Origin: a virus
Reading direction: 5' to 3' (one strand)
Length of the DNA stretch: 62,094 nucleotides
Virus record (IMG/VR): IMGVR_UViG_3300042141_000119
Span: 1 to 62,094 of that record
A program made the position numbers and the translations under genes. Below, piece after piece: positions 833 through 60,049 of the stretch; position 1 is the stretch's first letter, and every line of letters starts with the position of its first letter. A model generated the notes under the pieces. The model saw only the letters and a program-made list of their open reading frames with translations, was not told where the DNA came from and did not search any database.

Positions 833-1573
833 ATGCCTGTTGTCTATTGCTATGGACGGGCCAGCACCAGCAGCCAGACGCTCACGGAGTCTCACCAGCG
901 GGCCGTGTGCGAGGAGCACGTCACTCGCTCGCTTATCCCCAGCGGCTACGCCTACGGCGGCTGGCTCTACGATTCCGCCACGAGCGGCAGCAAGCCGATG
1001 TTCGAGCGGGACGAGGGCCGCAAGCTCTGGGCTCTCGTGCAGCCGGGAGACAAGATCGTCTGGGCCAAGCTGGACCGGGCGTTCCGCTCTGTGCTGGACG
1101 CCTCGCAGACGATGCTGCTGCTCTCCAGAAAGGACGTTTCCTTCAACTCGCTGGACTTAGGGCTGGACACCAGCACGCCCATCGGCCGCTGCGTGTTCAC
1201 GATCCTCACGGCGTTCGCGGAGCTAGAGCTTGAGTTCATACGCCAGCGCACTCGTGACGGCCTGCGTGCCAAGAGCAAGAGCGGGAAGCCGACGGGGCGG
1301 CACGCACCAATCGGCTGGCGCAAGGTGGGTGCCAAGAAGGACAGCTACTACCTGCCAGACGCGAGCGAGCGTGAGCAGGTGGAGAGAATGGTCGCCATGC
1401 GGAAGGCCGGTGCCTCTCTGGAGCGGCTCACGCTCAACATGACTGGCGTGCGGAGAACGAACGGCAAGCGGTGGAACATCAACTCCATCTCGCGGGCACT
1501 CATAGCTGCTGAACGTCGCTATCCAAAATCGTTCTCAAGACCGACAAGGCGACGTCGAGCCGCCGCCGTATAG
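833..1573 (+). CDS. Serine recombinase (resolvase/invertase type)
   Basis: A 246-residue small serine recombinase. The N-terminal catalytic domain starts VVYCYGRAS with Arg9 and nucleophile Ser11. The conserved KLDR block is at 79-82, and the long helix carrying EFIRQRTRDGL, at 134-144, is typical of the resolvase dimer helix. A C-terminal helix-turn-helix-like and basic tail (RPTRRRRAAAV) would bind DNA. ATG 833 is chosen because a perfect AAGGAGGTGA lies just upstream; the frame stays open further upstream but has no such signal. Its 3' end overlaps the convergent sigma-factor gene by 74 bases. It is the last gene of the rightward unit. The phage also has a tyrosine integrase, so this enzyme may resolve multimers or invert DNA rather than integrate. 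Confidence 0.92.
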   Translation: MPVVYCYGRASTSSQTLTESHQRAVCEEHVTRSLIPSGYAYGGWLYDSATSGSKPMFERDEGRKLWALVQPGDKIVWAKLDRAFRSVLDASQTMLLLSRKDVSFNSLDLGLDTSTPIGRCVFTILTAFAELELEFIRQRTRDGLRAKSKSGKPTGRHAPIGWRKVGAKKDSYYLPDASEREQVERMVAMRKAGASLERLTLNMTGVRRTNGKRWNINSISRALIAAERRYPKSFSRPTRRRRAAAV

Positions 1574-2018
1574 TCCGCTGGTCGCAGCCGACTTGCTCCC
1601 CGATTTCGCGGAGAGACTGGCCCTTGTAGAACCGAAGCTGGATCAGTCTCCGCGACTTCGGGGGCAGTCGCGCTATGGCGGCGTGCAGCCTGCCAGACGC
1701 ATGGCTTTTGGAGGCGGCTAGATGCTCTGCCAACTCCATCGGAATCCTGTCTGGCGAACTGTACCGAAGCCCCCGATTGCGGTCGATTTCCCGCAGCAGG
1801 GCGTTGCGGACGGCGACAGAAAAGTAGGTGGTAATCTTCGACTTTTCTGCGTTGTACGTCCTGGCGGCACGGCAAAGCGCCAAGTACGCCACGCTCGTGG
1901 AGTCTATGGCGTCAAGCTGCTTTCGTAGGGTCGGGTAGCGAAGGCGAAAGGCGGCTATCGCCTTCGGGACGACGGCCACCGCCTGCTGTACCACCAACTG
2001 TTGTTCATCGGTCAGCAT
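1500..2018 (-). CDS. Sigma-70-like RNA polymerase sigma factor
   Basis: A 172-residue protein with the two domains of a minimal sigma factor. Residues 42-79 resemble region 2 (a helix, then TTYFSVAVRNALLREID, the core-binding and -10 recognition part). Residues 116-164 resemble region 4, with the helix-turn-helix SLREIGEQVGCDQRTIRRRL. It would bind host core RNA polymerase and redirect it to phage promoters. It is the distal gene of the leftward unit and converges on and overlaps the serine recombinase. No strong Shine-Dalgarno is visible before ATG 2018. A role in switching to late genes, or in reading the iterated sites of the rightward unit, is inference. Confidence 0.85.
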   Translation of the reverse strand: MLTDEQQLVVQQAVAVVPKAIAAFRLRYPTLRKQLDAIDSTSVAYLALCRAARTYNAEKSKITTYFSVAVRNALLREIDRNRGLRYSSPDRIPMELAEHLAASKSHASGRLHAAIARLPPKSRRLIQLRFYKGQSLREIGEQVGCDQRTIRRRLDVALSVLRTILDSDVQQL

Positions 2019-9282: not shown

Positions 9283-9664
9283 TGGGTTTTCTCTCCGTCA
9301 GCCTGGAAACGTGCCTGACTAGGAGATTTATGTCCGGGCGGGGGCGGGCCCGTGACACTATTTTTCGCCGCACCAAACACTCCGAAATGCCTATATCCCG
9401 GCAGGTCTGCTCGAACGAGAAGTCGCCGCCGCTGCCGTGAAACACCCACCTGTACGCCGCCACCTGCCTCCTGAGCGTCTCGGCCGCACGGTAGCCGGTC
9501 TTGTAGACAAGGTCATGGCCCTCCCGCCTGTGCGCACGGCACAGGTCGATGATGTGGCCGTAGGAGCGAACAACCACCTCTATGCAGAATCGCCTCCACC
9601 CCTCCTCGCAGGACTCGGCAATGTTCTGGTCGTCGTACTCCGGCGGGTCGGGGAGGGCAATCAT
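9119..9664 (-). CDS. Helix-rich phage protein, possibly DNA-binding
   Basis: 181 residues from ATG 9664 (ATGA overlap with the upstream gene). The first 125 residues read well: EGWRRFCIEVVVRSYGHIIDLC, a basic helix, then SFEQTCRDIGISECLVRRKIVSRAR, which resembles a helix-turn-helix. The last 55 residues overlap the next gene (9004-9282) for 164 bases and look like its shadow. Either the C-terminus is dispensable, or a frameshift ends the protein near 9264-9300, where another frame is open. No named family recognised. Confidence 0.5.
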   Translation of the reverse strand: MIALPDPPEYDDQNIAESCEEGWRRFCIEVVVRSYGHIIDLCRAHRREGHDLVYKTGYRAAETLRRQVAAYRWVFHGSGGDFSFEQTCRDIGISECLVRRKIVSRARPRPDINLLVRHVSRLTERKPNGSRHGRGQDSAAGGMGTRVVDCVRNIRRANRSRADRRGAQTHAVRRFQDRDAH

Positions 9665-49261: not shown

Positions 49262-49966
49262 CTACGAATGTGAGTCAACTGTTTTTCGAGGAGGACGGCC
49301 GCGCCGTAACGTGACGCCCTGCTCGCGAAGCAGTCGGCGCGCTGTAGCCACGCAGCAGCCAATCGCAGAGGCTACCTGACAGACGCGCTTGCCTTCGTCG
49401 TGAAGCCTCCTCGCCAATTCGCGACCGGCTTGCTTAGGCCGTCCTCGAACGCCACGACTAATCCGAATTGCCGGAGGGCTACGACGCTCGCCACGCGCCA
49501 CAGCAGCCTCGTGCTCCATGATCTTCCGCTTGGCCTCGCCGTAAGCGGCAGAAGCCTGCTCGACTGTCGAGAACACCCCCAAATACAGAGTTTTATTGCG
49601 GTGACTTATGCAAGCCCCGTATGGGGAAACTCCCGAAAGGCGATTGAGGTAGACGCCCGGCGGAATCGGCTTCGACCGCATCTTTGGCACGGTGCAGTTG
49701 TGGGCGTTCAACGACAGCGTTGTCGCCCGCAGATTGCACAGCCGGTTGTCCGTTCGGTCCCCGTTGATGTGGTCGATATAGCGAGGAACGCTCCCGTCGC
49801 CGTACTCCCATGCCCACACAAGGCGGTGCATCGACACCCACCGCGTCCGCTTGCCATCGCTCCAAGCGTGACGGACGTATCCGCCAGCAGACTTCTGCCA
49901 CGACATCCGCTGCAAGCGGGCCGCGAACTTCTCGTCGTACTTCACCGGCAGGTCTGTGATGTCCAT
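49262..49966 (-). CDS. HNH homing-type endonuclease with AP2 domain
   Basis: 234 residues. HNH domain at about 35-90: HRLVWAWEYG, YIDHINGDRTDNRLCNLRAT, LNAHN. AP2-like DNA-binding module at about 105-145: GVYLNRLSGVSPYGACISHR then KTLYLGVFSTVEQASAAYGE. The C-terminal 60 residues carry a helix-turn-helix (QVASAIGCCVATARRLLREQ) and basic tail. Freestanding HNH/AP2 proteins cut DNA at specific sites and spread by homing. It lies at the divergence point of the two units. Confidence 0.9.
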   Translation of the reverse strand: MDITDLPVKYDEKFAARLQRMSWQKSAGGYVRHAWSDGKRTRWVSMHRLVWAWEYGDGSVPRYIDHINGDRTDNRLCNLRATTLSLNAHNCTVPKMRSKPIPPGVYLNRLSGVSPYGACISHRNKTLYLGVFSTVEQASAAYGEAKRKIMEHEAAVARGERRSPPAIRISRGVRGRPKQAGRELARRLHDEGKRVCQVASAIGCCVATARRLLREQGVTLRRGRPPRKTVDSHS

Positions 49967-50276
49967 GCCGCTGATTGTCGGTGCGGAAAATGATGTAGAT
50001 AGTCATGGGAGCTTGGGAACGACCTGTTTCTGGAAACTTTTGGCGGGGGGAATGTAAGTAAGTGCGTTCGCACGCGGGGGGGCTCGGGGGCCGGTCCCTC
50101 GCGTGCGTTCCATCTACCCGCCGCAAAAGGACTTCCGTTTCACGCTTGCGACCGATAGCGGGAAACGGCCTGCCGAAACCCTTGTTTTCTCCGGTCCATC
50201 CCCTCTGCGGAGTCTGTCTTGTGTCAGCACGGAGACGACGAGTGATCGTCACTGTGACTGACACGGAGTCCCTGCC
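49967..50276. promoter_or_regulatory. Divergent control region between leftward and rightward units
   Basis: 310 bases without a convincing gene. It must hold promoters for the HNH/SSB side and the rightward unit, though I cannot pick convincing -35/-10 boxes. Contents: an AT-richer stretch near 49990-50060, an inverted repeat GCACGCG (50070-50076) with CGCGTGC (50100-50106) enclosing a G-rich loop, the first copy of the 15-bp element (50202-50216), and a nested hairpin GTGTCAG...CTGACAC (50221-50264) before the first small gene. Confidence 0.6.
50202..50216 (+). promoter_or_regulatory. 15-bp element, copy 1 (CCTCTGCGGAGTCTG)
   Basis: First copy, with no gene before it. Followed by the nested hairpin at 50221-50264 and the Shine-Dalgarno of the gene at 50277. 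The downstream bases TCTT.TGTC.GCAC are shared with copy 2 only. Confidence 0.8.
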
Positions 50277-50405
50277 ATGCACCGCCTCGTTCGACACTGC
50301 ATCCGTTCCTTCGATGCCCGCTACGCCATGTTCCTTGTCATCCACAATGGCGACACTTGGCGGGCTCTCGATTCGGCACTGATCGCAAGCGTGCCGATCC
50401 GCTGA
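50277..50405 (+). CDS. Small protein, first gene of the rightward unit
   Basis: 42 residues, MHRLVRHCIRSFDARYAMFL then VIHNGDTWRALDSALIASV. GGAG is eight bases before ATG 50277. A small basic then mixed protein without known relatives. As the first gene after the control region it is likely transcribed first after entry. Confidence 0.6.
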   Translation: MHRLVRHCIRSFDARYAMFLVIHNGDTWRALDSALIASVPIR

Positions 50406-50410
50406 TTCCG

Positions 50411-50425
50411 CCTCTGCGGAGTCTG
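50411..50425 (+). promoter_or_regulatory. 15-bp element, copy 2
   Basis: CCTCTGCGGAGTCTG, five bases after the stop of the 42-residue gene. Followed by the hairpin GCACCA-CGT-TGGTGC at 50436-50450 and then the next start. Confidence 0.85.
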
Positions 50426-50485
50426 TCTTTTGTCGGCACCACGTTGGTGCTGGCTGTCCCGTGTCTCTCACTGATGGAGTGTTCC

Positions 50486-50608
50486 ATGTTTCGCCGCCTG
50501 TCGTTCCACGAGATTTACAACACGATCCACGCTCACGAGTCGTGGCGGTGGGATCGCTGGGACTGTCTGTGGGTTTCGCTGGCAGTCTACGTCGATTCGA
50601 TGCCGTGA
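50486..50608 (+). CDS. Small Trp-rich protein
   Basis: 40 residues, MFRRLSFHEIYNTIHAHESW then RWDRWDCLWVSLAVYVDSMP, with five tryptophans. GGAG lies 6 bases before ATG 50486; an in-frame ATG at 50474 would destroy the spacing. It could associate with a membrane surface. No relatives known to me. Confidence 0.62.
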   Translation: MFRRLSFHEIYNTIHAHESWRWDRWDCLWVSLAVYVDSMP

Positions 50609-50612
50609 ATCG

Positions 50613-50627
50613 CCGCTGCGGAGTCTG
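50613..50627 (+). promoter_or_regulatory. 15-bp element, copy 3
   Basis: Exact consensus CCGCTGCGGAGTCTG, four bases after a stop codon. Followed by GCGGGG (50635-50640) pairing with CCCCGC (50654-50659) and then the start at 50715. Confidence 0.88.
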
Positions 50628-50714
50628 GATGGTAGCGGGGCTTGCTTCGGCTTCCCCGCCTCCACCCGCACTTCGCGGGACTGTTCGGTTGTTCTTTCAC
50701 TGAGGAGATTTCCC

Positions 50715-51164
50715 ATGACTGTTGCTGACATGAAGGCCGCTGTTGCTCTTGCCGTCGAGCAGGTTCTCGGACTGGTTCAGGCGGACGCGGCACCTCCGGC
50801 CCCTGCGGTGGACCCGACTCCCGCACCCGTGCGGAAGCGCAAGGGCAATCCCGAAGCCCTCAAGCGTTGGCGCGACGAGCAGAAGGCCGCGAAGGCGAGC
50901 GGCACGGCCAAGCCCGCGAAGGCCGCGAAGCCTGCGGCACGGCCCGCTGCGGAGTCGAAGAAGCAGACCCCGAAGCCCGGAACGTGGACGGTCAAGAAGC
51001 ACACCACGCAGAAGGGCGTGGAAGGCAAGATCGTCACCGTCGGGCCGTTCTCCGCGTGGCTCCCGACTGGCGATGCCGAGAAGGAACAGGCCGCCATCGA
51101 CGCGATCAACCTCGTGTTCCGCTCGACTGCGGCCGTCGATCTTGCGAAGGCCATTCGGGCCTAG
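50715..51164 (+). CDS. Basic Ala/Lys/Pro-rich protein
   Basis: 149 residues. A helical start (VADMKAAVALAVEQVLGLVQ), an Ala/Pro/Lys-rich histone-like central stretch (EALKRWRDEQKAAKASGTAK) and a folded C-terminal part GTWTVKKHTTQKGVEGKIVT. DNA or RNA binding is likely from composition. GAGGAGATTTCCC precedes the start. It contains a 13-base match to the 15-bp element (50944-50956). Confidence 0.68.
   Translation: MTVADMKAAVALAVEQVLGLVQADAAPPAPAVDPTPAPVRKRKGNPEALKRWRDEQKAAKASGTAKPAKAAKPAARPAAESKKQTPKPGTWTVKKHTTQKGVEGKIVTVGPFSAWLPTGDAEKEQAAIDAINLVFRSTAAVDLAKAIRA
50944..50956 (+). repeat. Partial 15-bp element inside a coding region
   Basis: CCGCTGCGGAGTC, identical to the first 13 bases of the element, in frame as Ala-Ala-Glu-Ser. 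May be chance from preferred codons. Confidence 0.4.
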
Positions 51165-51179
51165 TCGCTGCGGAGTCTG
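51165..51179 (+). promoter_or_regulatory. 15-bp element, copy 4
   Basis: TCGCTGCGGAGTCTG, directly after the TAG of the basic protein. Hairpin CACCCTG (51201-51207) with CAGGGTG (51222-51228) follows, then a 100-base leader to the next start. Confidence 0.85.
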
Positions 51180-51280
51180 ACTGACGACGGCTCACACGAC
51201 GCACCCTGTCGGCTCACGCTGGCAGGGTGTTCGCCTGCGCCGTTGCAGGAGTTCGTTTCCACCAACAGGAGAGTATCGCT

Positions 51281-51526
51281 ATGGCATCTGTGCCGACGTA
51301 CACGCCCGAAGATGCACCGCAGTGGGTCCGCGATGTAGTCGAGAACCTTCAACGCGAACACGACAAGCGCGTCGAGGAGTACACGAAGCTGGAGGATGCG
51401 CTTCCACGCGGACGCGAGAGGGACGCGATCCTCTTTGCGGCCAACACCCTCCGCGACACCGGGCACCCGCGCGATGCAAACATCCTTGAGCTTTACATGG
51501 AGCGGCTGGTCACGTTCGACGGCTGA
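51281..51526 (+). CDS. Hypothetical small protein
   Basis: 81 residues from ATG 51281 with AGGAGAG upstream. Charged and helical (VRDVVENLQREHDKRVEEYT, RDAILFAANTLRDTGHPRDA). No family recognised. Has its own element-plus-hairpin leader. Confidence 0.65.
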   Translation: MASVPTYTPEDAPQWVRDVVENLQREHDKRVEEYTKLEDALPRGRERDAILFAANTLRDTGHPRDANILELYMERLVTFDG

Positions 51527-51541
51527 CCGCTGTGGAGTCTG
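51527..51541 (+). promoter_or_regulatory. 15-bp element, copy 5
   Basis: CCGCTGTGGAGTCTG, one mismatch, directly after a TGA. Followed by two hairpins, the second with a T-run. Confidence 0.83.
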
Positions 51542-51590
51542 GGATACGGGGCAGGACTGACACTGCCCCCAATCCTGCACTCGCAGGCTG

Positions 51591-51620
51591 CACCCATCGC
51601 ACGTTGCGGTGGGTGTTTTT
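51591..51620 (+). terminator. Terminator-like hairpin in the leader of the next gene
   Basis: CACCCATCGCA pairs with TGCGGTGGGTG over 11 bp (one G-T) around CGT, then TTTTTG. Lies between copy 5 and the start at 51649, the position of an attenuator. Confidence 0.8.
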
Positions 51621-51648
51621 GTTTCCACGTTTCCATGAGGAGTTTCCC

Positions 51649-51882
51649 ATGACCCATCGTGACATCACAGCCGTTCGCAACAGCACGGGCCGCGTCGAGG
51701 CCGCAGTGTTCCCCGCAGACGGAGGCTTCTACTTCCTCGACGTTCGCTCTGACGCCCCGCCGGTCGGCCCGTTCCCCACGCGGGAGCGTGCGGCTGCGTC
51801 CGCCGACATCAACGTCGAACTCGACCGGGAACTGGACCGGATGCTGACGCCGATGGTCGGCAAGGACCGCTGCGTCCGCTGA
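51649..51882 (+). CDS. Hypothetical small protein
   Basis: 77 residues from ATG 51649 (GAGGAG upstream). Beta/alpha: DITAVRNSTGRVEAAVFPAD, GFYFLDVRSDAPPVGPFPTR and an acidic helix ADINVELDRELDRMLTPM. Two genes in a row share this leader, as the next start is 12 bases on. Confidence 0.65.
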   Translation: MTHRDITAVRNSTGRVEAAVFPADGGFYFLDVRSDAPPVGPFPTRERAAASADINVELDRELDRMLTPMVGKDRCVR

Positions 51883-51894
51883 AAGGAGCAACCC

Positions 51895-52083
51895 ATGATC
51901 GTCAAGGTCGAACAGTGCTACTGCGGTCACGACAAGTACCGGTTTCGACTGACGCTGCCAGACGGCAAGCGTGAGTTTGTGCCGGGCCGCGAGTGGACCC
52001 GCACAGTGGCGACGGACGCACTCAACGTACTGGAGCGTGTCTACGGAGCCAGACGTTCCCGCATCCGCTTTCGGCACGTTTAG
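51895..52083 (+). CDS. Hypothetical small protein
   Basis: 62 residues, VKVEQCYCGHDKYRFRLTLP, DGKREFVPGREWTRTVATDA and a basic end RRSRIRFRHV. AAAGGAG precedes ATG 51895. Its TAG is immediately followed by copy 6 of the element. Confidence 0.65.
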   Translation: MIVKVEQCYCGHDKYRFRLTLPDGKREFVPGREWTRTVATDALNVLERVYGARRSRIRFRHV

Positions 52084-52098
52084 CCGCTGCGGAGTCTG
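52084..52098 (+). promoter_or_regulatory. 15-bp element, copy 6
   Basis: Exact consensus directly after TAG, followed by ACTTTTGC and hairpin GGGGCCAG (52111-52118) with CTGGCCCC (52134-52141). Confidence 0.88.
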
Positions 52099-52168
52099 AC
52101 TTTTGCGAACGGGGCCAGTCGTCATGGTGGCGGCTGGCCCCGTCGCGTTTCACACGAGGAGGTTCTCG

Positions 52169-52486
52169 ATGATCGCTGCTGTTGAGCCCCGCGAATACTG
52201 CCTGTCACGCACTGGCGTGATCCAGAATCCGGGCATGTTCGAGGGGTGCATGTTGTGGGTGCCGTACTTCTGGGACATCGCCCTCGACGGTCTGTACGAC
52301 GAGCTTCCGGGCGGCGTCCTGTCAGTGACGGTCGAGAAAGAGGACAAGGACTACTTCGCCTCTCTCGTGCGGGACAACCGCGATCCCACGCTCGACCAGC
52401 CCCTGCGGGAAGTGGCCCGCATGATCCGCCGCCGCCGACGCATCCGCCTTGTGCAGCGTGACGACGGCTTCGTCTGCGAAGCGTAG
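52169..52486 (+). CDS. Hypothetical protein
   Basis: 105 residues from ATG 52169 with GAGGAGG upstream (an earlier in-frame ATG overlaps the hairpin and is unlikely). Contains MFEGCMLWVPYFWDIALDGL and a basic helix EVARMIRRRRRIRLVQRDDG. No family recognised. Confidence 0.65.
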   Translation: MIAAVEPREYCLSRTGVIQNPGMFEGCMLWVPYFWDIALDGLYDELPGGVLSVTVEKEDKDYFASLVRDNRDPTLDQPLREVARMIRRRRRIRLVQRDDGFVCEA

Positions 52487-52495
52487 CGGAAATCA

Positions 52496-52510
52496 CCGCT
52501 GCGGAGTCTT
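52496..52510 (+). promoter_or_regulatory. 15-bp element, copy 7
   Basis: CCGCTGCGGAGTCTT, nine bases after the stop. Followed by a GCCGTCGGC...GCCGTCGGC near-palindrome at about 52518-52540. Confidence 0.83.
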
Positions 52511-52571
52511 GATTCTGGCCGTCGGCGCGTTGCCGTCGGCTGTCCCTTGTCCCTGTTTCTGAGGAGCTTCT

Positions 52572-52739
52572 ATGCGCACGAAGATTGCCAACACGATCCG
52601 TTTCATTCGCCTCTCCGACGCCGCCCGCAAGCTGGGGGCACAGTCCAAGCGTCAGTTCGTGGCCGACTTCCGCACGCTCACCAACAAGGAGCGACGCGAG
52701 ATCGCGGAACTCCTGAGTGAGAAGGAGGGCCGACAGTGA
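52572..52739 (+). CDS. Small basic protein
   Basis: 55 residues, MRTKIANTIRFIRLSDAARK then SKRQFVADFRTLTNKERREI. Helical and basic; could bind nucleic acid. GAGGAGC precedes the start; the GTGA overlap at its end couples it to the following gene. Confidence 0.65.
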   Translation: MRTKIANTIRFIRLSDAARKLGAQSKRQFVADFRTLTNKERREIAELLSEKEGRQ

Positions 52740-52972
52740 AGGCCAGCTACGAGGCGATGCGGCACGGCCTGCGGATGCTGCGGTCACACTTTGCCGTCCT
52801 TTCGGGCGAAGAGATGGGCCCATCGCAGTCATCGTGGCAGGACGTAGCCGCAGACTGTGCCGCAACGCTGCGGCAACTGGCGGAACTGCTCGATGCGGCA
52901 CGCGACGGGAAGGCCGAACCCTTCCTTGTGTTCCCGTCGCTGGACGACTTGGACGGGGAGGCTGACGCATGA
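52736..52972 (+). CDS. Hypothetical helical protein
   Basis: 78 residues from GTG 52736 (GTGA overlap). YEAMRHGLRMLRSHFAVLSG, DVAADCAATLRQLAELLDAA and an acidic end (FPSLDDLDGEADA). Coupled in a three-gene set with its neighbours. Confidence 0.62.
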   Translation: MKASYEAMRHGLRMLRSHFAVLSGEEMGPSQSSWQDVAADCAATLRQLAELLDAARDGKAEPFLVFPSLDDLDGEADA

Positions 52973-53181
52973 GGTACGACGTTCTGTCGCCCGATGGAAT
53001 CTCAATCCATCACGAGGACACCTACCCAAGCCGTGCCGCTGCGGAGTCTGCACTGCGGGAGTGGGCCAAGAGGTTCGAGTTTCAAGGCTTTTATTCCACG
53101 AGTCGGCGGGAGCGTATCCCGCTGGACGAACTGCCCGGCAGGTGCCGGATCGTGGAAGCAGCCACAGATGACGACGACTGA
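52969..53181 (+). CDS. Hypothetical small protein containing an element copy
   Basis: 70 residues from an ATGA overlap. Pattern RYDVLSPDGISIHHEDTYPS, AAAESALREWAKRFEFQGFY, acidic tail TDDDD. The AAAES part is encoded by an exact copy of the 15-bp element (53036-53050). Similar phage proteins of unknown function interpret this region as a small alpha/beta fold. Confidence 0.65.
   Translation: MRYDVLSPDGISIHHEDTYPSRAAAESALREWAKRFEFQGFYSTSRRERIPLDELPGRCRIVEAATDDDD
53036..53050 (+). repeat. 15-bp element, exact copy inside a coding region
   Basis: CCGCTGCGGAGTCTG, full consensus, coding for part of Ala-Ala-Ala-Glu-Ser-Ala. Preceded by GTG rather than a stop, without a following hairpin. Confidence 0.6.
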
Positions 53182-53197
53182 TCGTCGCGGCGGATAG

Positions 53198-53212
53198 CCG
53201 CTGCGGAGTCTG
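53198..53212 (+). promoter_or_regulatory. 15-bp element, copy 9
   Basis: Exact consensus 16 bases after a stop, followed by GTTTTTGC and a terminator-like hairpin, then the amidoligase start. Confidence 0.88.
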
Positions 53213-53222
53213 GTTTTTGCAG

Positions 53223-53255
53223 GGCCGTCCCAACGTGGGGCGGCCTTTTCTTTTT
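53223..53255 (+). terminator. Terminator-like hairpin before the amidoligase gene
   Basis: GGCCGTCCC pairs with GGGGCGGCC over 9 bp around AACGT, followed by TTTTCTTTTT. It lies upstream of the amidoligase start at 53275 and after element copy 9. Confidence 0.85.
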
Positions 53256-53274
53256 CACCACTGAGGTACGAGCG

Positions 53275-54405
53275 ATGCCAACTGAGGAACAGTACGACGA
53301 GAACGGGTGGGACGCACTCGGCCGCCACAGAGACACGGGAAACACTTACGACCCGGATGGCTACGACATCGACGGCAACAGCCGATGCGACAACGGCGAC
53401 TGCGACGACGACACCTGCGAACGCTGCCACCCGGAGCCGGAGCCGGAGCCAGAGGACGACGAGACGTTCGATGAACAGCTGCACGCTTACAACGCGAAGG
53501 CCACCGACATTCACGGCTGGTTCTACGCCCCGATGCGGCTGGCAAACGGCGGCTGGTCAGCGGACAGAACGCTGTACGCAGGCCACGAGATTGAGATGTA
53601 CTCGGACAACGAGGACTATGACGACGTTCTGACAGTCCTTCGCCAGCTTGACACGCCGTACCGAAACCTCAACCCGCAGACGCGAACGAACCGCTGTGCG
53701 ATTGCCAAGCACGACGGCTCGCTCGACGTTCAAGACGGCGGCTTCGAGGCCGTGACCGTGCCGCTCACACGGGCACAGACCTACGGCATCTTCGAGTCGT
53801 TCAAGATCGTCGGCGACGGCAACTGCTCGGCGTGGAACATGGGCAACGAGGTGGGGCATCACATCCACCTGTCTCGTGCAGCCATCGGCCCGCTGACGCT
53901 CGGCAAGCTGCTCGTGTTCGCCAATGCGGACGCCAATCAGAGGTTCGTGGAGCGTGTGGCCTGCCGCCCGGCAGAGTTCAACGGCTTCTCCTCGAAGAAG
54001 CTGACTGACGCCATGCGGGAGGAGCCGAACGGCGACAGGTACGAGGTCATCAACGTGACCACGCACACGGTCGAGTTCCGCATGTTCAAGTCGAACCTCA
54101 TGACCAGAGCGATCCTCAAGAACTACGAGTTCGCCGTGTCGCTCACGCGGTACTGCGAGCAAGTGACGCACGGCATGGACACAGAGCCGGAGTGGAGCAG
54201 CCACCCGCTGCACTACTTGCAGTACCGGCGATGGGTCGCGGAACACCACGCCGAGTATCCGTACCTGCACCAGTTCTTCCTGGCTCACCCGTCAATGAGC
54301 CAGAACTACCGCTCCAGCAAGGGGCTCAAGGCCAACGCCATCCCGAAGGATCGCAGCCCCAAGTTCGCGTTCATCCGCACGCTGTCGGCCGCTGGCGGTG
54401 CCTGA
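53275..54405 (+). CDS. Amidoligase (COOH-NH2 ligase, glutamine-synthetase-like)
   Basis: 376 residues. The amidoligase signatures are all present: GHEIEM at 103-108, KHDGSL at 145-150 then GFEAVTVPL, GHHIHLS at 194-200, and TVEFRMF at 265-271 with preceding VIN. They supply the metal and ATP ligands for making an amide bond between a carboxylate and an amine. A 60-residue N-terminal extension is acidic with four Cys (CDNGDCDDDTCERC) and may bind metal. The next gene is a class II glutamine amidotransferase, which could supply ammonia. The target (a peptide, protein or cell-wall component) is unknown. GAGG precedes the start. Confidence 0.88.
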   Translation: MPTEEQYDENGWDALGRHRDTGNTYDPDGYDIDGNSRCDNGDCDDDTCERCHPEPEPEPEDDETFDEQLHAYNAKATDIHGWFYAPMRLANGGWSADRTLYAGHEIEMYSDNEDYDDVLTVLRQLDTPYRNLNPQTRTNRCAIAKHDGSLDVQDGGFEAVTVPLTRAQTYGIFESFKIVGDGNCSAWNMGNEVGHHIHLSRAAIGPLTLGKLLVFANADANQRFVERVACRPAEFNGFSSKKLTDAMREEPNGDRYEVINVTTHTVEFRMFKSNLMTRAILKNYEFAVSLTRYCEQVTHGMDTEPEWSSHPLHYLQYRRWVAEHHAEYPYLHQFFLAHPSMSQNYRSSKGLKANAIPKDRSPKFAFIRTLSAAGGA

Positions 54406-54445
54406 CACTCTTCCACCACCAACCACCCACACAGGAGACACACGC

Positions 54446-55291
54446 ATGTGCCTTGCAATCTACAAGCCCGCCGACACCGCCCCTGACTGGACCGCCTACG
54501 AGAACGGCCACCTACAGAACAGCGACTCGTGGGGGTTTGCCGCAGTCGTTGACGGACAGATCGTCACGCGATGCGGCATCGGGAAGTTCACAGAGTTCCG
54601 CGAAGCCTTCGAGCCGTATGCCGACAAGCAGGCCATCATTCACTTCCGATGGGCCACGCACGGCAAGAAGGACGAGGCGAACTGCCACCCGTTCATGGTC
54701 AGTGCGCACCTCGCCATGATCCACAACGGTGTCATCCGCATCAAGTGCGACGAGAACCCGTCCATGTCTGACACTTGGCACTTCAATGAACTGGTTCTCA
54801 AGCCGATGCACGAGCGCGACCCCGACTTCTACGGTCGGCCCGATGTCATCTTCTCGCAGGAACTGGCACACGACAGCAGCAAGTTCGTGTTCCTGCGGGC
54901 CGACGGCGACTACCAAATCTGGAACGCCGATGACGGGGAGTGGGAGCGCGACGGCCACTGGTACAGCAACGACTCCTACGAGGGCTACGGGATGCGGGGT
55001 GCCAGCCGGTCGGCGTCAACCACAAAGAGCAGCATCGGCTTCGATGCAGCCATCCGCTCAGACGCACCGACTTCGCGGTACGACGACGAGGACGAGAAGC
55101 TGTGGCGACGCGAGGCTGAGGCTGTCTGCGTGTCTGCCGGTTACTACGACGAGGATGCGGACGAGACAGACCACTACACGCAGATTCGCATTGACGATCT
55201 TCGGACGTACGGAATGTCGGAGTCTGCCATCGAGGAAGTCCTCAAGATTTTCGGGGCGTGTGGCCTCGAAGCACTGCACGACGCTTACTGA
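54446..55291 (+). CDS. Class II glutamine amidotransferase
   Basis: 281 residues starting MCLAIYKP; removal of Met would expose Cys2 as the N-terminal nucleophile. Other GATase II elements: WGFAAV near 29-34, HFRWATHG at 66-73, HPF at 81-83 and IHNGVI at 92-97. It would hydrolyse glutamine to release ammonia. No synthetase domain is fused; the last 90 residues are acidic with a C-terminal helical part. The partner is probably the amidoligase immediately upstream. CAGGAG precedes ATG 54446. Confidence 0.9.
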   Translation: MCLAIYKPADTAPDWTAYENGHLQNSDSWGFAAVVDGQIVTRCGIGKFTEFREAFEPYADKQAIIHFRWATHGKKDEANCHPFMVSAHLAMIHNGVIRIKCDENPSMSDTWHFNELVLKPMHERDPDFYGRPDVIFSQELAHDSSKFVFLRADGDYQIWNADDGEWERDGHWYSNDSYEGYGMRGASRSASTTKSSIGFDAAIRSDAPTSRYDDEDEKLWRREAEAVCVSAGYYDEDADETDHYTQIRIDDLRTYGMSESAIEEVLKIFGACGLEALHDAY

Positions 55292-55301
55292 TGGAGCAGG
55301 C

Positions 55302-55520
55302 ATGGGCGCGTTCTGGTTTCACTACAACAAGCCCGCATCGCGGGCGGCGGGCCATCCGGTAATGACGGTCCACCACAGGGACGCCTGCATCTTGGTTCGC
55401 AAGATCGTGTGTTCGGTCCCGGTGCGTAGCCGGGAGCGCAGGACACAGCCCCATGTCGTGATCGCTGGCAGAGGACTCGTCCGCATCGCTGGCGACACGG
55501 CATACATCGAGAAGGAATGA
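55302..55520 (+). CDS. Hypothetical small protein after the GATase
   Basis: 72 residues from ATG 55302 with GGAGCAGG upstream. GAFWFHYNKPASRAAGHPVM, VHHRDACILVRKIVCSVPVR and VIAGRGLVRIAGDTAYIEKE suggest a small beta-rich protein. Third gene of the amidoligase sub-operon; could be its substrate or a partner. Confidence 0.65.
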   Translation: MGAFWFHYNKPASRAAGHPVMTVHHRDACILVRKIVCSVPVRSRERRTQPHVVIAGRGLVRIAGDTAYIEKE

Positions 55521-55541
55521 CTGGCGAACGGCGGGGATTTC

Positions 55542-55556
55542 CCGCTGCGGAGTCTG
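55542..55556 (+). promoter_or_regulatory. 15-bp element, copy 10
   Basis: Exact consensus 21 bases after the stop of the amidoligase sub-operon, followed by the terminator-like hairpin at 55566. Confidence 0.88.
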
Positions 55557-55565
55557 GTTAGTAGC

Positions 55566-55600
55566 GGCCGGTGGCATGGTGCCATCGGCCTTTCTCTTTT
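55566..55600 (+). terminator. Terminator-like hairpin before the clamp-like gene
   Basis: GGCCGGTGGCA pairs with TGCCATCGGCC over 11 bp (one G-T) around TGG, then TTTCTCTTTT. Lies between element copy 10 and the Shine-Dalgarno GGAGG. Confidence 0.87.
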
Positions 55601-55612
55601 CTGGAGGTTCAC

Positions 55613-56353
55613 ATGAAGATTCCTGCGTTCATCAAACGACTGGCGGCAGTGTGCGACAGGGAGTCGGCACGGTTCGCACTCGGCGGCGTCAAGTGCGAGA
55701 GCGATGGCAAGACCGCCAAGCTCACGGCAACAGACGGCCGCATCCTTGCCACTGTTCACTGGAAGGACGACGACCCGGCGACGGTGGACATGGTTGCCGA
55801 CGCTCGGCAACTCTCGTCGCTCCCAGCGAAGGCTTTCCTGCATCCGAAGGGCGTGTGGTTCGACGGCTCGACGCTGCGAGCCACCGTCGGGACGGACAAG
55901 ACTGCCACAAAGGTCGATGCAATCGACGGCAGGTTCCCGCAGTACGAGAAAGTCATGGGCATCCATGACGACCCGGCCGGGTACGTCTCCGTCAGGCTGG
56001 ACGCCGCCCTTCTCGGCAAGCTGTGCGACCTGTCGCACGCCATGAACGACGACCAGCACAAGGACAAGGGGCTGACGCTGTTCGTGAAGGATCAGCAGTC
56101 GTGCGTGTTCGCAACCACCGTCAGCGAGGACGGGCAGCACGTTGCCCGCTTCGCCATCATGCCGCTGGCGGCAGACGACGGCAGCTACAAGCACGTTTTC
56201 CCGGCCCGACCCGGTGCGGAGTCTGGGAATGGGGAGCCGCAGCCAGCCCCGCCGCCGGAGCTCATGGACGGTGACGCCATCGCAGAGGCGGTGACCCGCG
56301 AGCCCGAGCCGCTCGGCTCTCTCGTGGAGGACGGAAACCTAGCCGCAGTCTGA
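55613..56353 (+). CDS. Sliding-clamp-like (DnaN-type fold) protein
   Basis: 246 residues. FIKRLAAVCDRESARFALGG, then KTAKLTATDGRILATVHW and IDGRFPQYEKVMG are the repeating pattern of beta-clamp domains (a strand with LxATDGxxL and the D..FP.Y motif). About two clamp domains long, so shorter than a bacterial DnaN (three domains). A Pro-rich C-terminal tail follows (PQPAPPPELMDG). It may tether host polymerase or compete with the host clamp. Own element-plus-terminator leader. Confidence 0.75.
   Translation: MKIPAFIKRLAAVCDRESARFALGGVKCESDGKTAKLTATDGRILATVHWKDDDPATVDMVADARQLSSLPAKAFLHPKGVWFDGSTLRATVGTDKTATKVDAIDGRFPQYEKVMGIHDDPAGYVSVRLDAALLGKLCDLSHAMNDDQHKDKGLTLFVKDQQSCVFATTVSEDGQHVARFAIMPLAADDGSYKHVFPARPGAESGNGEPQPAPPPELMDGDAIAEAVTREPEPLGSLVEDGNLAAV
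56211..56225 (+). repeat. 15-bp element, near-exact copy inside a coding region
   Basis: CCGGTGCGGAGTCTG, one mismatch, within the clamp-like gene (codes Gly-Ala-Glu-Ser-Gly). No hairpin follows. Confidence 0.5.
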
Positions 56354-56368
56354 CCGCTGCGGAGTCTT
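56354..56368 (+). promoter_or_regulatory. 15-bp element, copy 12
   Basis: CCGCTGCGGAGTCTT directly after the TGA of the clamp-like gene. The following hairpin (56369-56388: AGTTGC/GCAACT) encloses the Shine-Dalgarno AAGGGAGG in its loop. Confidence 0.87.
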
Positions 56369-56390
56369 AGTTGCAAGGGAGGGCAACTCA

Positions 56391-56486
56391 ATGTCACACG
56401 GATGGACACACACGGAGATCGAACTGTTCCTGCTCATGTCGCTGGTGTTCATGAAAGCACTGGCCGTATGGGCACACCTCGACTGA
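56391..56486 (+). CDS. Very small hydrophobic protein
   Basis: 31 residues, MSHGWTHTEIELFLLMSLVF then MKALAVWAHLD; a single possible membrane span. Shine-Dalgarno GGGAGG lies in the loop of a hairpin two bases before ATG 56391. Short but well placed; first gene of its sub-operon. Confidence 0.5.
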   Translation: MSHGWTHTEIELFLLMSLVFMKALAVWAHLD

Positions 56487-56504
56487 CACGCAAGGAGGAA
56501 GCAC

Positions 56505-56783
56505 ATGCCGGAACTGTCGCCACGACAGCGAGACATGCTGGAGTTCATCGCCCGCAGCACTGAGGCGAACGGATACCAGCCGTCGTACGCGGAGATCGCC
56601 AAGCACTTCGGGTGGGCCAGCCGTGCTTACTGCTCGGCCATCACGCGAAGGCTGGCGAAGCTGGGAGTCGCACGCAACAAGGGCATGAGAGCCCTGTCGT
56701 TCGACTGGAAGTCTTACCTCGACAGCGGAGGCGGTCGTCGTCCGACCGCTCGCACCCGCCGTCGCCACCCCATTGCGCTATAG
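56505..56783 (+). CDS. Stand-alone LexA-like winged-helix protein
   Basis: 92 residues. ELSPRQRDMLEFIARSTEAN, GYQPSYAEIAKHFGWASRAY, then ITRRLAKLGVARNKGMRAL is the LexA DNA-binding domain. There is no serine peptidase domain; the protein ends in a basic tail (GGGRRPTARTRRRHPIAL). It could bind phage or host operators without SOS cleavage and is the clearest repressor or regulator candidate in the rightward unit. AAGGAGG precedes the start. Confidence 0.82.
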   Translation: MPELSPRQRDMLEFIARSTEANGYQPSYAEIAKHFGWASRAYCSAITRRLAKLGVARNKGMRALSFDWKSYLDSGGGRRPTARTRRRHPIAL

Positions 56784-56791
56784 GTGAACCG

Positions 56792-56986
56792 ATGTATACT
56801 CTGCCTCACAGAGCGATCCCGACGGCCACTCTGGAACTACGGCCACGCGAGATCGAACTCCTCATCCGCTCCCTTGCGGAGTCAATCGAGGAGGAGTCCG
56901 AGTACGGCGACGAGGCGAAGGCGGCGGAACTCGCCGTGCTGCAACGCCGACTCGCGAACGTGGACAAGTCACTCATCACTCACTAA
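56792..56986 (+). CDS. Hypothetical small helical protein
   Basis: 64 residues from ATG 56792 (AGGTGA before). TLELRPREIELLIRSLAESI then EAKAAELAVLQRRLANVDKS; a helical hairpin is likely. Between the LexA-like gene and a larger unknown gene. Confidence 0.63.
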   Translation: MYTLPHRAIPTATLELRPREIELLIRSLAESIEEESEYGDEAKAAELAVLQRRLANVDKSLITH

Positions 56987-56997
56987 GGAGGTTTCCC

Positions 56998-57864
56998 ATG
57001 ACTGGCAGCATCTCAATCGGCGCACGCTCCGGCGGCGTCTGCATCCTCAACGCAGCGTCCGCCCTGCGTGACACGGTGTTCGCCGCCGCTGACTCCGTCG
57101 GCTGCGGCCAGTACGTCCCGAAGCAGCCCGCCACCACCACGACGCTCAGTCTGGCGATGCGGGCCGTCGGCACCACGCTGTACGGCAAGCGGCGGAAGCA
57201 GCCCATCGTTGCGAGGCACATCGACGGCGATGCCTTCGAGTGTGTGCGGGTCGTGCCCGGCAGCGACAGGAACACCTACCACCACCTGTTCTCTGCCAGC
57301 ATCGACCGGCAGTGGAACGTGACAGTGCTGGCCCACAACCACGACGCACACTCGTGGACTCTGGACTCGTCCTTGTCCAGTGCGGTGGTCACGATGCGGG
57401 ACTACCTGCCTTCGCCTGTCGTGTCGCAGGTCGCAGTCAAGATTCTTTCCTCATGGAAGGGCGTGCTGCTCAAGGACGACGGCGGCGTGTGGTTCCTTGC
57501 GGACGAGCATCTCGACAAGTACCGCACGCTTGCCGCCGGTCTGCGGCAGAACGGTCGTGGCCCGAAGTTCACGCTGACCACGTTCCCCATCGACGCCAAC
57601 CCTGACACGGTGGCCCACGTTATCCAGAAGGTGCGTGACACCGTGAACGAGGGCGTCAATCAGATCATGCAGGACGTTCTGGAGGCGACCGGCGGAATGA
57701 ACGACCGCTCCATCAACGTCCGACTGTCCCGTGCCAACAAGCTGCTCGCCCTCGTGGAGCAGTACCAGTCTCTGACCGGCATCGCCATGCCGGAACTGAC
57801 CGATGCAATCGAGCAGTGCAAGCAGGCGGTTGCGGTCAATCGCCTGCTCGCCGCTTCTGTCTGA
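56998..57864 (+). CDS. Unknown conserved-looking protein
   Basis: 288 residues. SISIGARSGGVCILNAASAL, DSSLSSAVVTMRDYLPSPVV, then GVLLKDDGGVWFLADEHLDK and a C-terminal helical part (VRDTVNEGVNQIMQDVLEAT). Alpha/beta architecture without recognised catalytic motifs. Strong AAGGAGG. One of the larger genes of the rightward unit; its neighbours are regulators and the MoxR pair. Confidence 0.65.
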   Translation: MTGSISIGARSGGVCILNAASALRDTVFAAADSVGCGQYVPKQPATTTTLSLAMRAVGTTLYGKRRKQPIVARHIDGDAFECVRVVPGSDRNTYHHLFSASIDRQWNVTVLAHNHDAHSWTLDSSLSSAVVTMRDYLPSPVVSQVAVKILSSWKGVLLKDDGGVWFLADEHLDKYRTLAAGLRQNGRGPKFTLTTFPIDANPDTVAHVIQKVRDTVNEGVNQIMQDVLEATGGMNDRSINVRLSRANKLLALVEQYQSLTGIAMPELTDAIEQCKQAVAVNRLLAASV

Positions 57865-57899
57865 CGTAACCCATTACCCACCAGAAAAGGACTTCACCC

Positions 57900-58286
57900 A
57901 TGCGTGCCATGCGTATCAACGTGACCGAGTTCGTGAAGGAGTACACCGCCGCCGCCGAAGCCAACCTCTCCTCAAGGGAGTTGGCCGACCTGCTTGGCAT
58001 GAGCCAGGCCGGAGTCTGGCACCGGGCCGACCAGTGCCGCAAGCACGGCATTGAACTGCCGGTCCTGCGAGGCGGCCGGTTGCTGTCGCCGCAAAGCCGG
58101 GCCCGCAGGAGGGCCAAGTACCGGAAGAACTGGCAGCAGAATCGCAAGCCGGAGGCCGCGTCGAAGTCGCAGGCTCAGGCTGCGGTCATCGACGCGGTGG
58201 CTGACCGCGTGGCAGACAAGGTGTTCGCCCGGCTGCGTGACACGCTCCGGTTCCAGTTCTTCGTAGGCCCGGAAATCCCGGCATAA
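57900..58286 (+). CDS. Helix-turn-helix protein
   Basis: 128 residues from ATG 57900 (AAAAGGAC). N-terminal NVTEFVKEYTAAAEANLSSR then ELADLLGMSQAGVWHRADQC is a helix-turn-helix; a basic linker (RARRRAKYRKNWQQNRKPEA) and a C-terminal helical part follow. It could be a regulator of the rightward unit. Ends two bases before element copy 13. Confidence 0.72.
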   Translation: MRAMRINVTEFVKEYTAAAEANLSSRELADLLGMSQAGVWHRADQCRKHGIELPVLRGGRLLSPQSRARRRAKYRKNWQQNRKPEAASKSQAQAAVIDAVADRVADKVFARLRDTLRFQFFVGPEIPA

Positions 58287-58288
58287 AC

Positions 58289-58303
58289 CCGCTGCGGAGT
58301 CTT
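58289..58303 (+). promoter_or_regulatory. 15-bp element, copy 13
   Basis: CCGCTGCGGAGTCTT two bases after TAA, followed by the G-run hairpin at 58310-58341 and the MoxR start. Confidence 0.87.
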
Positions 58304-58309
58304 GTTCTC

Positions 58310-58341
58310 GGGGGGGGCGGAACAGTTCTGCCCCTCCCCCC
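58310..58341 (+). terminator. Strong G/C hairpin before the MoxR gene
   Basis: A run of eight G then CGGAAC pairs with GTTCTG and CCCC-T-CCCCCC, a very stable stem followed by TTCC rather than a full T-run. It may block or attenuate transcription or translation ahead of the MoxR gene. Confidence 0.65.
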
Positions 58342-58370
58342 TTCCATTCACCTAGAGGAGTTCATCCATC

Positions 58371-59474
58371 ATGGCCCGTACCACTCTCGGCAACAGCCCT
58401 GCGTTCCTCGCCGCTCAGGTTGTCCCCACGCTCGTGCGTGGCGGCACTGGCGTCGGCAAGTCCTCAACGTGGGAAGCTCTTGCCGCCGCACTCGAGCGGA
58501 CGTTCGTCCCGCTGCTTGGTGCAACGCACCTGCCCGAAGACTTCTCGGGCTACCCCACCCCGAACCACAAGGAAGGCATCGTGAACATGATGCCGACATC
58601 GTGGGTCAAGAAGACGATGGACGGCAAGGCGCTCGTCCTCGTGGACGAGGTGACGAACGTGCCATCGGCAACGCAGGCTGGCCTGCTGTCGGTCATCTCG
58701 GAGCGTCGGGTTGGCGACTACGTCATGCCCGAATCCACGATGGTCGTCGGTGCCTGCAACCCGCCGGAACTGTGCCCCAATGCGGTGCCTCTGGCACCTG
58801 CGATGCGGGCCCGGTTCTTCCACCATGACTGGGTGGTGGACTACGACCACTGGTTCTCCGGCCTGCGGGCTGGCTGCGAGTGGACGGCACCGGAGTTCCC
58901 GATTGTCCCTTCGCACTGGCGGGACTTCCTGCCGCAGTTCGGATCGCTCGCTGAGGCTTTCCTCCGGGCGGCACCCGACTGCCGCGAGAAGCTGCCGACC
59001 GACGACGAGACGATGTCTTTCCCGAACTGCCGCACATGGACGTACCTCGTCAAGTGCTTCGCTGCCGCAGCCGCCTGCGACTACGACCGCGAGCATCCCA
59101 TGTACAAGGCTCTGGCTCTTGGCAACGTGGGCGAGGCGGTTGGTGGCGAGTTCCTCCGCTACTGGCGTAACCTCGACCTCGCCAACCCGGAGTCGTTCCT
59201 CTCGGGAGACGAGCAGTACCAGTACGTCAAGCGTCCAGACGCGAACATCTGCCTGCTCACTGGCTTGGTCAAGGGGCTGCGCGACAACACCAGCCCGGAC
59301 CGCTGGGTCAATGCGGCGAAGGTGTTCGTGACTGTAGGAGAGCAGGAGATCGAGTCGTTCCTCATGCAGTTCAAGTCCTTCTGGCGTCCCATCAAGGACG
59401 GCGGCGTGCGGCCTGACGGCTGGACTCCCCCGAAGGATGTGCTTGCCAAGCTGATGGCACTAGTTCAGTCGTGA
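58371..59474 (+). CDS. MoxR-type AAA+ ATPase
   Basis: 367 residues. Walker A GGTGVGKS at 24-31, pore/helical insert GYPTPNHKEGIVNMMPTSWV, Walker B LVLVDE at 88-93, sensor I Asn130 in GACNPPE, and an alpha-helical lid. MoxR ATPases work with VWA-domain partners to insert metals or remodel proteins; the VWA protein is four genes further on (60245). Shine-Dalgarno GAGGAG. Confidence 0.9.
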   Translation: MARTTLGNSPAFLAAQVVPTLVRGGTGVGKSSTWEALAAALERTFVPLLGATHLPEDFSGYPTPNHKEGIVNMMPTSWVKKTMDGKALVLVDEVTNVPSATQAGLLSVISERRVGDYVMPESTMVVGACNPPELCPNAVPLAPAMRARFFHHDWVVDYDHWFSGLRAGCEWTAPEFPIVPSHWRDFLPQFGSLAEAFLRAAPDCREKLPTDDETMSFPNCRTWTYLVKCFAAAAACDYDREHPMYKALALGNVGEAVGGEFLRYWRNLDLANPESFLSGDEQYQYVKRPDANICLLTGLVKGLRDNTSPDRWVNAAKVFVTVGEQEIESFLMQFKSFWRPIKDGGVRPDGWTPPKDVLAKLMALVQS

Positions 59475-59498
59475 CCCGCAAACACAGGAGACACACAC

Positions 59499-59810
59499 AT
59501 GGCTCGCACATGGAGCGTAACGGAGGCCACAGAGAGAGCGGCTTTCCTATCGGACGATACGGGCGAAGACGTTGCCGTTCTTGAGCGGCTCCCCGACGAA
59601 CTGTTTGACTCGCAAGCCCCGCTGAACGGCGAGGATTGGCAGGCAATGGTGGACTTGGTGGCTGCTGCCCCCGAGTTGCTGGCCGCCCTGCGACTCGCAC
59701 GCAACGCGCTCAACGTCGCGCCTCGATTTCATGTCGGCTCGACAGACAGCTACGAGATAGCGGCTGCGTGCGACAAGGCTATTTCCAAATCAGAAGGGAG
59801 GAGTGAGTGA
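59499..59810 (+). CDS. Small conserved-looking phage protein
   Basis: 103 residues with the widespread short motif AAPELLAALRLARNALNV. The N-terminal part (EDVAVLERLPDELFDSQAPL) is acidic. CAGGAG precedes the start. Function unknown; lies between the MoxR and VWA genes. Confidence 0.65.
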   Translation: MARTWSVTEATERAAFLSDDTGEDVAVLERLPDELFDSQAPLNGEDWQAMVDLVAAAPELLAALRLARNALNVAPRFHVGSTDSYEIAAACDKAISKSEGRSE

Positions 59811-60049
59811 TGTGCAGCCAAATGAACTGGCATGACTACGGCCTGACGGACCAGCCATTCACCGTGCCAGACAGTCAGCGGCGGGTACTCGTCGCACAGG
59901 ACGATGGGTACATCGAGATCGGCTACTGGGACGGAGCCCGGTTCCATTTCGACTATCCCACGCTGGTGGACGCCACGATACCTCGCGTGAGGTACTGGTG
60001 CGACCTGCCCGACACACCTACAGAGGAGCGTGACCATGCCAATGATTGA
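59810..60049 (+). CDS. Hypothetical small protein
   Basis: 79 residues from ATG 59810 (TGATG overlap with the previous stop). NWHDYGLTDQPFTVPDSQRR, DGYIEIGYWDGARFHFDYPT; beta-rich. No family recognised. Confidence 0.63.
   Translation: MCSQMNWHDYGLTDQPFTVPDSQRRVLVAQDDGYIEIGYWDGARFHFDYPTLVDATIPRVRYWCDLPDTPTEERDHAND

What the first reader, a model, noticed from the sequence alone, without database searches (positions are those of the whole stretch)
50202..58303. Iterated 15-bp element (CCGCTGCGGAGTCTG) after stop codons
Eleven intergenic copies in one orientation (50202, 50411, 50613, 51165, 51527, 52084, 52496, 53198, 55542, 56354, 58289) match the consensus with at most two changes. Six lie 0-2 bases after a stop codon and the rest within about 21 bases; copy 1 has no gene before it. 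The element contains the palindrome CCGC-T-GCGG plus AGTCTG. It recalls stoperators or iterated promoters of other phages, but I know of no described element of this sequence. It marks gene sets: genes without it are coupled by ATGA/GTGA/TGATG overlaps or short gaps.
Basis: seen in the sequence. Interest (0 to 1): 0.9.

Follow-up and report, generated by a model that had tools for sequence, protein, structure and literature searches.

The report
Iterated phage promoter-hairpin cassette element
An uncultivated phage family repeats one 15-base sequence in front of nearly every rightward transcription unit, always followed by a different RNA hairpin, which looks like a previously undescribed phage-specific promoter whose sequence has been replaced in a sister lineage.

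Summary
CCGCTGCGGAGTCTG occurs 14 times (up to 2 mismatches), all on the + strand between 50202 and 58303, and nowhere else in a complete 62-kb podovirus genome (127-bp terminal repeat). About 25 uncultivated relatives carry the same array.

It does not belong to the stop codon: comparing gene orders, it travels with the downstream gene. The unit is larger than 15 bp: T(-3), the core, NNT(17)TNY(20)R(21), then a stem-loop of unrelated sequence starting at position 20-24 (74 of 100 copies; 23 expected), then Shine-Dalgarno and gene. Hairpins show compensatory changes and mostly lack U-tracts. The array has no sigma-70-type promoter. Intragenic matches lack the flanks.

Best reading: a non-canonical phage promoter starting at the YR step, giving mRNAs that begin with a hairpin. 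In a sister clade a different iterated element holds the same place, while a separate late motif (GGACATAAATC, minus strand only) is unchanged. No transcript data exist, so RNA processing remains a serious rival.

The parts
50202..50216 (+). element copy 1 (CCTCTGCGGAGTCTG), head of the array, no gene before it
50220..50265 (+). leader stem-loop of copy 1 (dG -25.2, z -5.1)
50411..50425 (+). element copy, leader hairpin 50432-50454, gene 50486-50608
50613..50627 (+). element copy (perfect), leader hairpin 50635-50659, gene 50715-51164
51165..51179 (+). element copy, leader helix from 51185, gene 51281-51526
51527..51541 (+). element copy, leader hairpin 51548-51569, gene 51649-51882
52084..52098 (+). 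element copy (perfect), leader hairpin 52105-52146, gene 52169-52486
52496..52510 (+). element copy, leader hairpin 52517-52541, gene 52572-52739; cassette breakpoint against L129 and L130
53198..53212 (+). element copy (perfect), leader hairpin 53221-53247 (this one with a U-tract), gene 53275-54405
55542..55556 (+). element copy (perfect), leader hairpin 55566-55590 (with a U-tract), gene 55613-56353
56354..56368 (+). element copy with a short leader (22 nt to the start codon), 31-aa gene 56391-56486
58289..58303 (+). element copy, leader hairpin 58310-58338, MoxR-like ATPase gene 58371-59474
50944..50958 (+). intragenic core match (2 mismatches), flanks do not fit the extended consensus
53036..53050 (+). 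intragenic perfect core match, flanks do not fit the extended consensus
56211..56225 (+). intragenic core match (1 mismatch) in the linker of the clamp-like gene, flanks do not fit
1500..2018 (-). ECF-like sigma factor (regions 2 and 4), candidate but not demonstrated reader
9325..9335 (-). GGACATAAATC, the separate late-type promoter motif of the minus strand

Best explanation
The 15-mer is the core of a phage-specific, non-canonical promoter, repeated in front of each rightward (probably early) transcription unit. RNA polymerase with a lineage-specific recognition factor binds about -24 to -7 and starts transcription at the purine of the YR step (core position +21). The mRNA therefore begins at the base of a stable stem-loop, which probably protects its 5' end, followed by Shine-Dalgarno and start codon. 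Element, leader and gene form a cassette that is exchanged as a unit. Shown by sequence: the array, its strand bias, linkage to the downstream gene, the extended consensus, hairpin locking, compensatory pairing, replacement of the element in a sister clade, cassette breakpoints. Inferred: that it is a promoter, the start position, the protective role of the hairpin, early timing. Not known: which factor reads it; a phage activator, the phage sigma factor and a host sigma factor are all open.
For: One orientation and one gene cluster only. Stays with the downstream gene when upstream neighbours change (165/189 pairs vs 77/155 in the opposite comparison). Precedes the first gene of the array with nothing upstream. 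Conserved positions run from T(-3) through the core to T(17) and YR(20/21) in 103 non-redundant copies; 97% of intergenic copies pass a flank score that no intragenic match passes. First helix starts at 20-24 in 74 of 100 (null 23), peak at the R; stems keep pairing by compensatory changes. At least 20 nt always remain between element and start codon. No sigma-70-type promoter in the array (0 found, 1.1 expected). A different element occupies the same places in the sister clade, and the minus strand has its own promoter-like motif.
Against: No transcript data. The conserved block (-24 to -7 from the inferred start) fits neither a -35/-10 layout nor an ECF -35 box. No dedicated RNA polymerase was found (but its control was silent). 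The phage sigma factor has a nearly constant region 2 across clades in which the element changes, so the obvious reader is doubtful. Gene ends before the element pair with it more than expected, which a promoter alone does not require.
Confidence: 0.6

Rival explanations
1. RNA-level junction: a long transcript started upstream of copy 1 is cut at the single-stranded linker between two hairpins, giving upstream mRNAs with a 3' stem-loop and downstream mRNAs with a 5' stem-loop.
For: Downstream hairpin locked to the element. Upstream gene ends pair with the element better than other gene ends (mean -10.5 vs -7.1 kcal/mol; mean z -1.2).
Against: Copy 1 keeps the full consensus without an upstream arm (-7.6 kcal/mol). 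The 5' half of the core is invariant even where nothing pairs with it. Perfect core matches occur inside genes, where cutting would be harmful, although their flanks differ. No other promoter is seen ahead of copy 1.
Confidence: 0.18
2. Stoperator-like site: a phage repressor binds the many asymmetric copies and blocks elongation.
For: Short asymmetric repeats in one orientation relative to transcription, in short intergenic spaces, as in Cluster A mycobacteriophages (PMC6550527; PMC9283540). Recombinase gene present.
Against: Strict tie to the 5' side of transcription units, constant minimum spacing to the start codon, locked hairpin and YR step are not expected. The LexA-like protein had no counterpart in the relatives' gene calls; no repressor partner was identified.
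Confidence: 0.08
3. Intrinsic terminators or attenuators: element plus hairpin ends the upstream transcript.
For: Some leaders have a GC stem with a T-run (53221-53247, 55566-55590, 51590-51616).
Against: Only 22 of 100 have five or more T in the nine bases after the stem. The element follows the downstream gene. Copy 1 has nothing to terminate.
Confidence: 0.06
4. Recombination linker without a regulatory function of its own: the repeat persists because it allows exchange of gene cassettes.
For: Sharp breakpoints at the element, for instance 98% identity in the 60 nt upstream and 8% in the 50 nt downstream between window 52496 and L129 201.
Against: Strand bias, hairpin locking and flank consensus are not needed for recombination; orthologous copies stay in place over large divergence; a different sequence serves at the same places in the sister clade.
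Confidence: 0.06

Closest known systems
Promoters read by phage-encoded sigma factors in podoviruses phiEco32 (tAATGTAtA) and 7-11 (GTAAtg-16-aCTA), PMC8948821
   Same: Podovirus with opposed gene clusters, a phage sigma factor, short phage-specific promoter motifs repeated before transcription units, start site a few bases downstream of the motif.
   Different: Those are middle/late promoters with 6-8 copies and AT-rich boxes. The present element is GC-rich, 15 bp, has 8-14 copies on the rightward cluster, is followed by a locked hairpin, and is not shown to be read by the sigma factor; the GGACATAAATC motif of the minus strand is the nearer counterpart.
Start-associated sequences (SAS/ESAS) of Cluster K mycobacteriophages, PMC3203893
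   Same: 13-bp asymmetric repeat, nearly always one orientation, confined to non-structural genes, attached to the downstream gene family, absent from hosts; ESAS adds inverted repeats that differ between subclusters.
   Different: SAS lies 3-7 bp before the start codon and contains the Shine-Dalgarno; the present core ends at least 20 nt before it and a separate Shine-Dalgarno follows. Sequence unrelated.
Stoperators of Cluster A mycobacteriophages, PMC6550527 and PMC9283540
   Same: Many short asymmetric copies, one orientation relative to transcription, motif drifts between relatives.
   Different: Stoperators bind the immunity repressor and are spread over the genome; here the copies mark the 5' side of units in one cluster and no repressor partner was found.
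17-bp dyad repeats of Cluster O mycobacteriophages, PMC4351075
   Same: More than 30 copies, many in short intergenic spaces, some within genes.
   Different: A true dyad, mostly away from promoters; the present element is asymmetric beyond its first nine bases and tied to transcription-unit starts.

Membership tests
Phage-specific promoter class (general) | Conserved motif upstream of each transcription unit, in gene orientation | tested here: met
Phage-specific promoter class (general) | Primary transcript 5' ends at a fixed distance from the motif | not testable with these tools
   no RNA data; only indirect support from the YR step and locked helix start
Sigma-70-type promoter | TTGACA / TATAAT hexamers with 16-18 nt spacing | tested here: not met
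   0 in 49900-59600, 1.1 expected
ECF promoter read by the phage sigma factor | Sigma factor encoded by the same phages | tested here: met
   all full genomes checked of both clades
ECF promoter read by the phage sigma factor | Conserved -35 box about 16-17 nt before the -10 box | tested here: not met
   upstream of the core only weak G/C preference at -10/-9 and T at -3
ECF promoter read by the phage sigma factor | Promoter sequence changes together with the DNA-contacting regions of sigma | tested here: inconclusive
   region 2 nearly constant, region 4 differs between clades; the late motif is constant
T7-like single-subunit RNAP promoter | Phage encodes such an RNAP | tested here: inconclusive
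   no PF00940 match in 13 contigs, but the control genomes were silent too; no RNAP-like family match among large late proteins
Stoperator | Asymmetric repeat in one orientation relative to transcription | tested here: met
Stoperator | Bound by a phage immunity repressor that stops elongation | not testable with these tools
   no conserved repressor partner identified
Start-associated sequence | Lies 3-7 bp before the start codon and contains the Shine-Dalgarno | tested here: not met
   20-128 nt between core and start codon, separate Shine-Dalgarno
Intrinsic terminator | GC stem followed directly by a U-tract | tested here: not met
   22 of 100 copies only
Known Rfam RNA | Covariance-model match above the gathering score | tested here: not met
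   only two sub-threshold matches

The most novel reading that the evidence does not exclude
A dedicated transcription programme: the rightward genes of this phage family are read only through a promoter type unlike known sigma-70, ECF, sigma-54 or T7 promoters, recognised by an undescribed phage factor, with a near-obligatory 5'-terminal hairpin; the element has been swapped wholesale between clades while the late promoter class stayed constant.
Probability: 0.3. Interest if true: 0.8.

Novelty: new variant of a known kind. Interest (0 to 1): 0.62.

Why it matters
If it is a promoter, one 15-bp motif predicts almost every rightward transcription unit of a phage family known only from metagenomes. 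It offers a compact, GC-rich, possibly orthogonal promoter-leader cassette. The clade-to-clade replacement is a natural experiment for finding the recognition factor. It also shows how a repeated control element can be the seam along which phage gene cassettes are exchanged.

Tried and rejected
Single-subunit RNAP promoter: no PF00940 match (silent control) and no RNAP-like motif or family hit in the large late proteins. Host-wide motif: a scan of 84,980 bacterial and archaeal genomes with the extended pattern gave four isolated matches, none an iterated array. LexA-type regulator as binder: no counterpart in the relatives' gene calls. Known RNA family: none. Attachment or integron-like cassette site: no complementary core on the other side, copies in one orientation only (sequence inspection). 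Intragenic matches as extra promoters: their flanks score like random sequence. I first thought the 56211 match marked a C-terminal extension over an old intergenic copy; the protein alignment did not support it. Diaminopurine genome, suggested by the nucleotide-metabolism genes: no PurZ. Literature text search for the 12-mer: two papers, unrelated subjects. Not used: structure prediction, because no single candidate reader stood out.
Full report
1. Observation. Third-order random sequences give 0.12 for the array. Three matches, one of them perfect, lie inside genes (50944, 53036, 56211) and had been overlooked.

2. What the window is. It is an IMG/VR record of 62,094 bases with a 127-base exact terminal repeat, so very probably a complete genome. 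A P22-like portal, a major head protein, a RadD-type helicase, ERF, SSB and other late or replication genes lie on the minus strand; I read the 569-aa ORF at 39059-40768 as the large terminase from its GGNRSGKS motif, without a family match. The + strand block runs from 50277 through the end and on to 1573. It includes amidoligase-like, glutamine-amidotransferase-like, sliding-clamp-like, MoxR-like and VWA-like proteins and a serine recombinase. A 172-aa ECF-like sigma factor with regions 2 and 4 is at 1500-2018 on the minus strand. No close homologue was found among cultured phages with the portal or the MoxR-like protein. The host is unknown.

3. Relatives. The 15-mer occurs repeatedly, in gene orientation, in about 25 viral contigs. 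An extended pattern is almost confined to this family: 27 of 29 matching stretches in the viral collection are from contigs with iterated copies, against four isolated matches in 84,980 bacterial and archaeal genomes.

4. Which gene it belongs to. Of 216 gene junctions from the window and eleven relatives, 94 carry the element. If the downstream family is the same and the upstream one differs, both junctions carry it in 165 of 189 informative pairs; with the same upstream and a different downstream family, in 77 of 155. Downstream families F4, F6 and F7 always have it; F0, F1, F2, F5 and F9 never do. Junctions without it are tight. The first copy stands before the first gene of the array in the contigs that cover it. 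The element is therefore a 5' feature of the following unit. These pairs are not independent, since the contigs are related.

5. The real unit. The logo of 103 non-redundant intergenic copies adds T at -3, T at 17 and Y-R at 20/21. Folding positions 15-64 shows the first helix starting at 20-24 in 74 of 100 copies (23 expected), with the peak exactly at the R; mean z is -3.3. The stems differ in sequence between copies. Within gene families they keep pairing through compensatory changes: F6 5 of 15 pairs, F7 5 of 11, F14 4 of 22, F16 5 of 14. Only 22 of 100 are followed by a T-rich tract, so most are not terminators. The distance from element end to start codon is never below 20 nt. A flank score built on the intergenic copies places 97% of them (leave-one-out) above the 95% point of random positions and none of 13 intragenic matches, so the intragenic matches are core look-alikes or relics.

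6. Upstream side. Gene ends adjoining the element fold with it better than other gene ends do (-10.5 vs -7.1 kcal/mol), often with the stop codon in the loop. Copy 1 does not show this (-7.6). This may give upstream mRNAs a 3' stem and is the best argument for an RNA-level role; the copies are related, so the p-value is optimistic.

7. Sister clade. Contigs whose MoxR ATPase is 51-56% identical (L178-L180, L182) have a different iterated sequence in the same places, TGWTTTCAGGGGYCGGCGAKT in L178-L180 and a variant in L182, again followed by a hairpin; more closely related contigs carry CCGCTGCGGAGTCCG (L160), CCGATCCGGAGTC (L172) or CCGATGCGGAGTC (L169). A second motif, GGACATAAATC (up to 1 mismatch), occurs 22 times on the minus strand and never on the plus strand in seven full genomes of both clades, mostly 25-70 nt before minus-strand genes, and changes little. 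Those seven genomes were joined from fetched pieces of phage records for these counts.

8. Who reads it. The sigma factor is in every full genome checked of both clades. Its region 2 is almost constant and its region 4 recognition helix varies. A constant region 2 fits the constant late motif better than the changing array element, as in phages phiEco32 and 7-11, whose sigma factors read middle or late promoters (PMC8948821). I therefore do not assign the array element to it. A host sigma factor, a phage activator and the phage sigma factor all remain possible.

9. Cassettes. Sequence identity switches at the element: between window 52496 and L129 201 it is 98% over 60 nt upstream and 8% over 50 nt downstream. 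With the same downstream gene and different upstream genes the mean is 52% upstream and 76% downstream. In a few pairs the leader is shared while the gene differs, so exchange also occurs at the leader's 3' end.

10. Verdict. Non-canonical phage promoter with a 5'-terminal hairpin, probability about 0.6; RNA processing junction 0.18; the others below 0.1 each. It works like the phage-specific promoters of sigma-encoding phages but is not shown to be one of them. Start-associated sequences (PMC3203893) and stoperators (PMC6550527) are similar in distribution but differ in position or in defining partner. I found no description of this sequence in the open literature searched.

Noticed in passing
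9325-9335 (minus); weaker match 28003-28013 (minus); relatives G003, G007, G009, G014, G015, G023: Second iterated motif, GGACATAAATC, minus strand only, mostly 25-70 nt before leftward genes; resembles a TATAAA-type late promoter with a weak TGNC box about 20 nt upstream.
   Followed up: partly
1500-2018 (minus): ECF-like sigma factor conserved in all full genomes of both clades; weak matches to planctomycete/verrucomicrobial sigma subfamilies hint at the host phylum.
   Followed up: partly
49967-50201: Divergent region with conserved blocks, including an inverted repeat (TTCACGCT..AGCGTGAA type) shortly upstream of copy 1 in most relatives.
   Followed up: no
56391-56486: A 31-aa protein conserved at 67-90% across relatives, with its own element and a leader hairpin that holds the Shine-Dalgarno in its loop in the window.
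   Followed up: no
9661-10532 (minus): dATP/dGTP diphosphohydrolase-like and deoxynucleoside-monophosphate phosphatase-like genes side by side; the first is in 8 of 9 full genomes, PurZ in none.
   Followed up: partly
58371-61702: MoxR-like ATPase and DUF2201/VWA-like protein, among the most conserved non-structural genes of the family.
   Followed up: no
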